From assembly GCA_013152475.1 (NCBI GenBank), contig JAADGH010000078.1:155916-219915 (forward strand): a stretch of DNA of 64,000 nucleotides, written 5' to 3'. Below the pieces are notes generated by a model. That model saw nothing but the letters and a program-made list of their open reading frames with translations, did no database searches and was not told the DNA's origin. The DNA is from Planctomycetota bacterium (lineage in GTDB: Bacteria > Planctomycetota > Brocadiia > JAADGH01). Shown here piece after piece: positions 3,367 to 5,330 of the stretch (position 1 is its first letter; each line of letters begins with the position of its first letter). A program made the position numbers and the translations under genes.

Positions 3367-3536
3367 GTTGATTCCTTGTTCCTCTTTTGTCTTGAGAACC
3401 CACGCAACGGCAGAATAGCATAGCGCGCGGCCAGGAGCGGCTCAAGCGAATTCCCCACATGGAGCACAATCACATCGGCGCCGCATCCGGATCTTCCTTT
3501 GAAATCGGGACCGCATTCGGATAGACTTCATCTGAG

Positions 3537-3741
3537 GTAACCATTTAGCCAAGTACAGGTTGTGTGCCACGCTCAAGCTCCGGCTTGAGCGTGCAGGCGG
3601 CGGGGTGCCTGGCGGTTCGCAAGACACGCTCAAACAAGTTTGAGCGTGGCACCTGGCCCCCGATATTTCTGTAGGGCAAGCTCGCAATGATGGGGCTTGC
3701 CGCCTCAATATGCCCTCACCAACACTTGGCTAAATGGTTAC
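3537..3741. mobile_element. MITE-like element, 18-bp perfect TIRs (GTAACCATTTAGCCAAGT) flanked by 8-bp TSD CATCTGAG; IS66-like termini
   Basis: TIR-L 3537-3554 is the exact reverse complement of TIR-R 3724-3741. Direct repeats CATCTGAG at 3529-3536 and 3742-3749. No plausible CDS inside; contains two palindromes (3568-3593, 3625-3648). Confidence 0.85.
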
Positions 3742-3797
3742 CATCTGAGAAGACCACGGGAAAACAGCCAGCAGAGAAGCCCAACAGGAGGTGTCAG

Positions 3798-5330
3798 ATG
3801 AGAAAGTTTGCACTGTCCCGAATACTCCAGATCCTTGCATTTCTCTCAGCCCTTGCGGCCCTCGCAACGTGCGCCACTGCCCAAACAGAAAAGGCGCGCG
3901 CGCTGGAGAAGATTCGCAAGCACATCAAGCCCCTGACTCATCCCCTCGGCGACCGTCTGCCGATCATCACCTGGCAGAACCGCAACCTCCCTCTCGGCAT
4001 GGAGGCAGGGAACATAGAGGAGAATCAAAAAGTCTTCGTGGACCGCGGCTTCCTGCCCACGTGCAACGCGTGCGTGAATCCCGAGAAGGCGAAGCTCTAC
4101 GTCCCGATCTTCAAGTTCTGGCAGAGCCAAGGCTTCCCCGTCTGCATCCTTCCGCAGGGCTGGGTGCAGACGCTCTACACAACGGCCCGGAACGGCCGGT
4201 ACAAATGCCCCCACCAACCGCCCGCCGAGCAAAGCGAGCACTACCCCTGCCCGGCTCTCATGATGACCCACAAACGCATCCCCTCAGCGGCCGCACGGAC
4301 CGCCGACACCCTCCGGGCGCTCAAGGAAAATGGCATCAAGCTCAAACTCCTGTTGGTTGATTTCGAATCCGGCGCATATCTGCGGAACGCGGCCGACCGG
4401 GAAGAAAATGTCAGGAAGCAGATGGAGATGGCGGCGCAGTGCCCCCGCTGCATCGAGACCTTTGGCAAGGAGGCCCTGTCCACACTCGACGGCTATGTCG
4501 GCGTGGTGAACAAGGCGCGCGCCAGCGCCACGAAGCAGGCCCTCTGCGATCCCGCCCGTTCCGTATTTCCCGACCTCTTTATCGGCAACTATTACGCCTG
4601 GCCGATCAATCGCGTTCCGCGGCCCGAGGGCCGGTGGCCGGCCTACGGCTACGAGGGCAGCGGCCTGAACGTCTTGATGCCCCGTGTCTACATGAACGCC
4701 GGCTGGGGCGGCGCGGGCAGGGACCAGGACAAGATGAACTGGAACGCCTTCTTCTGCTGCCTGGAAGGCTTCTCGCCAGCGGCGTCGGTGAGGCGCGAGG
4801 GAGAGCTTCTGATCCCCTGGCCGCACGTCTGGCTCGGTGGCTCATACCTGAAGTTTGTGATGAAGGGCCGCAAGCTGCCGGAGCCCTGGGTCATGAGCGA
4901 GATGGCGCGGCACATGATGCTGCGCGGGGCCGAGACCTTCGCCATCTGGGTGGACGCTCAGATCGGCGAGTTCCCCGCCGACTACCCCTATCCCGAGTAC
5001 GCCGAGATGGGGCAATTCTGCTACGACGTCAAGGGCGTGCAGGAGGGTTTTAGCGACATGCTGCGCTTCAACTCTTTCCTGCGTAAAGCCAAGCCCATGA
5101 ACTTCGAAGTCCCGGGCGCACGGTCGCAACTGGGTGCGGAAACGGCCACATGGTCCGGCGTGCAGACACCTGAGAAGGCCCTTGTCCGGACGATCTCCTT
5201 CAACCAGGGCAAGATCGTTGAGAAGAAGATAGAGGCCTATGGCAAATCCATCCCCCTGACCTTCGGACCGAAGGGGCAGTTCTACTGGGTCTATCCCGAT
5301 GGGAGGGCGGAAAAGATCGAAGGCGAGTGA
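3798..5330 (+). CDS. Secreted hypothetical protein, possibly a TIM-barrel glycosidase-like fold
   Basis: ATG 3798 after AGGAG; MRKFALSRILQILAFLSALAALATCATAQ signal peptide; 510 aa. The upstream extension in the ORF track runs into the MITE and is not credible. Confidence 0.8.
   Translation: MRKFALSRILQILAFLSALAALATCATAQTEKARALEKIRKHIKPLTHPLGDRLPIITWQNRNLPLGMEAGNIEENQKVFVDRGFLPTCNACVNPEKAKLYVPIFKFWQSQGFPVCILPQGWVQTLYTTARNGRYKCPHQPPAEQSEHYPCPALMMTHKRIPSAAARTADTLRALKENGIKLKLLLVDFESGAYLRNAADREENVRKQMEMAAQCPRCIETFGKEALSTLDGYVGVVNKARASATKQALCDPARSVFPDLFIGNYYAWPINRVPRPEGRWPAYGYEGSGLNVLMPRVYMNAGWGGAGRDQDKMNWNAFFCCLEGFSPAASVRREGELLIPWPHVWLGGSYLKFVMKGRKLPEPWVMSEMARHMMLRGAETFAIWVDAQIGEFPADYPYPEYAEMGQFCYDVKGVQEGFSDMLRFNSFLRKAKPMNFEVPGARSQLGAETATWSGVQTPEKALVRTISFNQGKIVEKKIEAYGKSIPLTFGPKGQFYWVYPDGRAEKIEGE

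What the first reader, a model, noticed from the sequence alone, without database searches (positions are those of the whole stretch)
3529..3749. Intact-looking IS66-type MITE with perfect 18-bp TIRs and perfect 8-bp target duplication
Seen directly: TIR GTAACCATTTAGCCAAGT (3537-3554) mirrors 3724-3741, and both ends are flanked by CATCTGAG (3529-3536, 3742-3749). Established knowledge: IS66-family elements typically begin GTAA and make 8-bp duplications. Inference: a 205-bp non-autonomous derivative mobilised by an IS66-like transposase elsewhere in the genome. Perfect TIRs and TSD suggest a recent insertion.
Basis: partly seen in the sequence, partly recalled or inferred. Interest (0 to 1): 0.75.

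Follow-up and report, generated by a model that had tools for sequence, protein, structure and literature searches.

The report
IS66-type miniature transposon carrying REP palindromes
A 205-base, gene-free jumping element sits between two genes of a Brocadiia (planctomycete) genome; it belongs to a family of dozens of copies that made 8-base target duplications when they inserted, and every complete copy carries hairpin repeats of a second mobile-repeat type, so it is a well-supported but largely ordinary transposon relic with an unusual cargo.

Summary
It is one of a family. The TIR occurs 81 times (<=3 mismatches) in the 6.5-Mb genome against 3 for the reversed control, at 58 loci. Of 26 complete copies, 13 have an exact 8-bp target duplication and none has a 6-, 7- or 9-bp one; 20 match in at least 6 of 8. 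None of 650 cross-pairs reaches 7 of 8. IS66 elements of sister Brocadiales genomes end in GTAACTATTCAGCG, so filing the ends as IS66-type is well supported. No IS66 transposase was found in this genome, and no autonomous element with these exact ends in 392 phylum genomes.

All 26 complete copies carry REP-like palindromes. The window copy and two others carry a doublet of GTGCCACGCTCAAG..CTTGAGCGTG, which occurs 79 times genome-wide, mostly without TIRs, and lies near two of seven RAYT (REP transposase) loci. So these MITEs ferry REP doublets. MITEs containing REPs, and REP dimers inside longer palindromes, are already reported. This is a new member of a known kind with modest interest.

The parts
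3529..3536 (.). left target-site duplication CATCTGAG
3537..3554 (+). left terminal inverted repeat GTAACCATTTAGCCAAGT
   Evidence: 81 places genome-wide at <=3 mismatches
3555..3657 (+). type-A REP doublet unit (query 27-129), also found alone at many places without TIRs
3568..3593 (.). first REP palindrome CACGCTCAAGCTCCGGCTTGAGCGTG
   Evidence: I3
3625..3648 (.). second REP palindrome CACGCTCAAACAAGTTTGAGCGTG
   Evidence: I4
3675..3701 (.). third hairpin GGCAAGC..GCTTGCC containing CTCGCAATGA, related to other right ends of the family (L018, L002, L003)
3724..3741 (-). right terminal inverted repeat
3742..3749 (.). right target-site duplication CATCTGAG

Best explanation
The 205-bp element is a miniature inverted-repeat transposable element (MITE) with IS66-type ends. 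It inserted in the intergenic region between a leftward gene (start about 3366) and a rightward gene (start about 3798). An IS66-type DDE transposase acting in trans bound the GTAACCATTTAGCCAAGT ends and made staggered cuts, so the insertion duplicated 8 bp of target (CATCTGAG). Its interior is a REP doublet (BIME-like), a repeat that the genome's RAYT transposases probably spread separately. The doublet was captured between IS66-type ends, and the composite then transposed as a unit, giving at least three copies with different duplications. Shown: ends, duplications, family, REP identity, co-movement of ends and REP. Inferred: the IS66 transposase, the RAYT origin of the REP, the direction of capture.
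For: TIR at 81 places / 58 loci against 3 for the control. 26 paired copies: exact flush repeats 13 at 8 bp, 1 at 5 bp, 0 at 4, 6, 7, 9 or 10; mean flank identity 0.80 at 8 bp against 0.26 at 9 bp; 0 of 650 cross-pairs >=7/8. IS66 (PF03050) elements of the class have ends GTAACTATTCAGCG, some with exact 8-bp TSDs (L116, L122). Brocadia-genus genomes hold related MITEs with GTAACTATTTAGCCAAGTG ends, one with TSD CGAAAATC. Three A-type composites with TSDs CATCTGAG, AAACAGTA, CAAGAATC share both ends and interior. REP palindrome: 79 sites against 0 for the control. Seven Y1_Tnp matches; all four tested match the RAYT model NF047646, one above its cut-off, and two of the seven loci hold four type-A palindromes against 0.22 expected.
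Against: No IS66 transposase was found in the genome, and no autonomous element with these exact ends in 392 phylum genomes, in the named contigs or in viral contigs. The match to Brocadiales IS66 ends is 11-12 of 14 bases and stops after about the first 13. The empty site could not be observed.
Confidence: 0.85

Rival explanations
1. The element is a MITE with these ends, but its mobilising transposase belongs to another 8-bp-duplicating DDE family, or to an undescribed one.
For: No PF03050 in the genome; no autonomous partner found anywhere searched.
Against: GTAA termini with 8-bp duplications are characteristic of IS66 (established knowledge), and IS66 elements of the same class share GTAAC[T/C]ATT[C/T]AGC. 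Other 8-bp families have different termini (established knowledge; not tested here).
Confidence: 0.1
2. REP doublets inserted repeatedly, through RAYT activity, into already dispersed MITEs that served as neutral landing sites, rather than being carried by them.
For: REP palindromes also occur alone at many sites, and unrelated REP types occur in different copies.
Against: Within a subfamily the MITE-REP junctions are shared by copies with different target duplications: window, L002 and L003; the 132-bp group; the 108-bp groups. The composite therefore moved as one. No complete copy without REP-like palindromes was found among 26.
Confidence: 0.1
3. It is not a transposon but a regulatory or terminator hairpin whose ends are inverted by chance.
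For: Strong folding (-114.4 kcal/mol, z -8.0); intergenic position.
Against: Dispersed family with flush 8-bp duplications; no terminator-like site in the region.
Confidence: 0.01

Closest known systems
IS66-family insertion sequences (PF03050 elements of Brocadiales) and their MITEs
   Same: GTAA termini, 8-bp target duplications; first ~13 bases alike (GTAACYATTYAGC)
   Different: No coding capacity, 205 bp; sequence after base 13 differs; cognate transposase not found
REP/BIME elements mobilised by RAYT transposases (GTAG- and CGTC-tagged REPs, PMC3733652; REPINs, PMC3116915)
   Same: Short GC-rich hairpins in inverted doublets, many dispersed copies, some next to RAYT genes
   Different: Here the doublet lies between DDE-type TIRs with 8-bp duplications, so the unit that moved is not the REP alone
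Coxiella QMITE2 (reviewed in PMC10969869) and REP dimers inside longer palindromes in Anabaena variabilis and Halothiobacillus neapolitanus (PMC3733652)
   Same: REP palindromes inside a longer palindromic or MITE-like element
   Different: Different ends and hosts; PMC3733652 describes the outer palindromes as REP targets, while here the target duplications show that the outer element itself transposes

Membership tests
MITE | short (<~500 bp), with TIRs and no transposase gene | tested here: met
   205 bp, perfect 18-bp TIRs; paired copies 103-313 bp
MITE | multiple dispersed copies with target-site duplications | tested here: met
   58 loci; 13 of 26 paired copies with exact 8-bp TSD, 20 of 26 with >=6/8
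IS66-derived | 8-bp target duplication | tested here: met
IS66-derived | GTAA-type terminus like IS66 of related hosts | tested here: met
   GTAACTATTCAGCG ends of class IS66 elements, 11-12 of 14 bases alike
IS66-derived | cognate autonomous IS66 element with the same ends | tested here: inconclusive
   none found: no PF03050 at E<=10 in the genome; no carrier. Absence in a fragmented MAG, where repeats are easily lost, is weak evidence
REP/BIME (interior) | multi-copy palindrome in inverted doublets | tested here: met
   79 palindromes, 0 in control; doublet units alone
REP/BIME (interior) | association with RAYT genes | tested here: inconclusive
   RAYTs present; 2 of 7 loci carry four type-A palindromes against 0.22 expected, but cleavage or mobilisation is untested

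The most novel reading that the evidence does not exclude
The IS66-type ends and the REPs form a regular two-transposase partnership across Brocadiia: DDE-type ends repeatedly capture unrelated REP palindromes (GTCATTCCCGCG, GTGCCACGCTCAAG, in Brocadia GATGCTGAA..TTCAGCAT) because the hairpin favours transposition or protects the element, so REP cargo is functional rather than incidental.
Probability: 0.12. Interest if true: 0.6.

Novelty: new member of a known kind. Interest (0 to 1): 0.35.

Why it matters
It is a clean case in which independent 8-bp duplications show that REP palindromes are dispersed as passengers of a DDE-type MITE. That gives a second route, besides RAYT, by which REPs can spread. 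It also adds a MITE family in a poorly studied planctomycete class, shared at the level of its ends with the genus Brocadia.

Tried and rejected
Autonomous partner: PF03050 in own genome, TIR pattern in 58 and 392 relatives, named genome contigs and viral contigs, and a search of the fetched locus flanks for a distant second end with the same duplication gave no transposase-bearing copy. A tblastn of class IS66 loci against the fetched own-genome loci gave one weak hit (L135 query to L084) lying outside the TIR element and not followed up. Empty site: joined flanks hit only the two halves in the window's own genome. Terminator reading: no terminator-like site. Literature for IS66-derived MITEs with REP cargo: no direct precedent found in the open-access library, but related precedents were found. 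Two family scans failed on frame errors; the RAYT one was repeated correctly.

Full report
What is there. The window lies in a 6.5-Mb, 250-contig MAG. Its relatives at class level include a genome whose MITE position (G004 C34:3547-3679) coincides with a named Candidatus Brocadia record (L145), so the class is taken as Brocadiia, Planctomycetota (inference).

It is a family. The 18-mer at up to 3 mismatches has 81 places in the genome, against 3 for the reversed control, grouped in 58 loci. Twenty-six complete copies of 103-313 bp could be paired. Exact direct repeats flush with the ends are 8 bp in 13 copies and 5 bp in one; none is 4, 6, 7, 9 or 10. Three more copies match 7 of 8 and four match 6 of 8, as expected for older insertions. 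Random pairing of left and right flanks (650 pairs) never reaches 7. This rules out chance and a mere hairpin.

Which transposase. The genome has no recognisable IS66 transposase, but 39 of 75 class genomes do. Their elements often end in GTAACTATTCAGCG and relatives of it, with exact 8-bp duplications in L116 and L122. The MITE ends GTAACCATTTAGCC match these in 11 of 14 bases, and the Brocadia versions (GTAACTATTTAGCC) in 12 of 14. At one mismatch the 19-base end occurs in this genome and five genomes of one Brocadiales genus, and in no other of 392 sampled phylum genomes. A mobiliser of IS66 type is the best reading, but its gene was not found.

The interior. Every complete copy carries REP-like palindromes. 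Twenty-three carry the GTCATTCCCGCG..GCGGGAATGAC type (143 strand hits genome-wide at up to 1 mismatch, 0 in the control; 33 of 88 listed palindromes lie within 200 bp of a TIR against 0.35 expected). Three, including the window copy, carry a doublet of GTGCCACGCTCAAG..CTTGAGCGTG (79 palindromes, 0 in the control). The doublet unit also occurs alone at many places. RAYT genes are present, and two of seven RAYT loci hold four of these palindromes, where 0.22 are expected. The window copy also has a third hairpin in its right half, related to other family ends.

Direction of events. Copies of one subfamily share both TIR-REP junctions but have different duplications: CATCTGAG, AAACAGTA and CAAGAATC for the type in the window; ACGAAATC and GGGGATAC for the 132-bp type; GCTCTGTT and CAGGGCGA for a 108-bp type. 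The composite therefore moved as a unit, and the REP is at least a passenger. Singlet and doublet REPs occur within one backbone (L047 or L050 against L069 or L049), with the singlet loop matching one or the other half of the doublet, which fits deletion between palindromes (inference). Some copies have a left TIR plus the doublet and end at the doublet's own edge (L004-L007); this is unexplained.

Age. The window copy and L002 are 96% identical over aligned columns but differ by indels of up to 14 bp; L003 is 88%. Perfect ends and duplication fit a comparatively young insertion, but the direct source copy was not found, and no sister genome allows an empty-site test.

Position. The element lies between a leftward gene with PcRGLX-like domains (start about 3366) and a rightward gene of 510 aa without a Pfam match (start about 3798). 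A weak promoter-like site (TTGAAA-17-TAGACT, 3499-3527) ends just before the left duplication, so the insert may lie in the 5' leader of the rightward gene. This is a consensus match only.

Known and new. MITEs with REP palindromes (QMITE2) and REP dimers inside longer palindromes are reported. What is added is a family in which the target duplications show that the outer element, not the REP, is the moving unit.

Noticed in passing
L004-L007 (G000 C224:14113, C154:2839, C155:36492, C119:296): Left IS66-type TIR plus REP doublet ending abruptly at the REP unit's own right edge, without a right TIR; two of them with imperfect offset repeats in the flanks.
   Followed up: partly
window 3499-3527: Promoter-like site (TTGAAA-17-TAGACT) ending just before the left target duplication; the element may form the 5' leader of the gene at 3798.
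   Followed up: no
L098, L101, L107 (Brocadia-genus genomes): Related MITE ends GTAACTATTTAGCC with a different interior palindrome, GATGCTGAAATAAATTCAGCA, present in low copy elsewhere in those genomes.
   Followed up: partly
L143, L144 (MAG Yes70-25): MITE-like copies with GTAACTATTTAGCCAAGTGAAG left ends and diverged right ends (..GGCAAAGTGTTAC); L144 appears flanked by AATATGAA on both sides.
   Followed up: partly
L018, L016 and the flank of L012 (own genome): A third dispersed palindromic repeat, GACGAAGCAATCTC / GAGATTGCTTCGTC, near or inside the family's elements.
   Followed up: no
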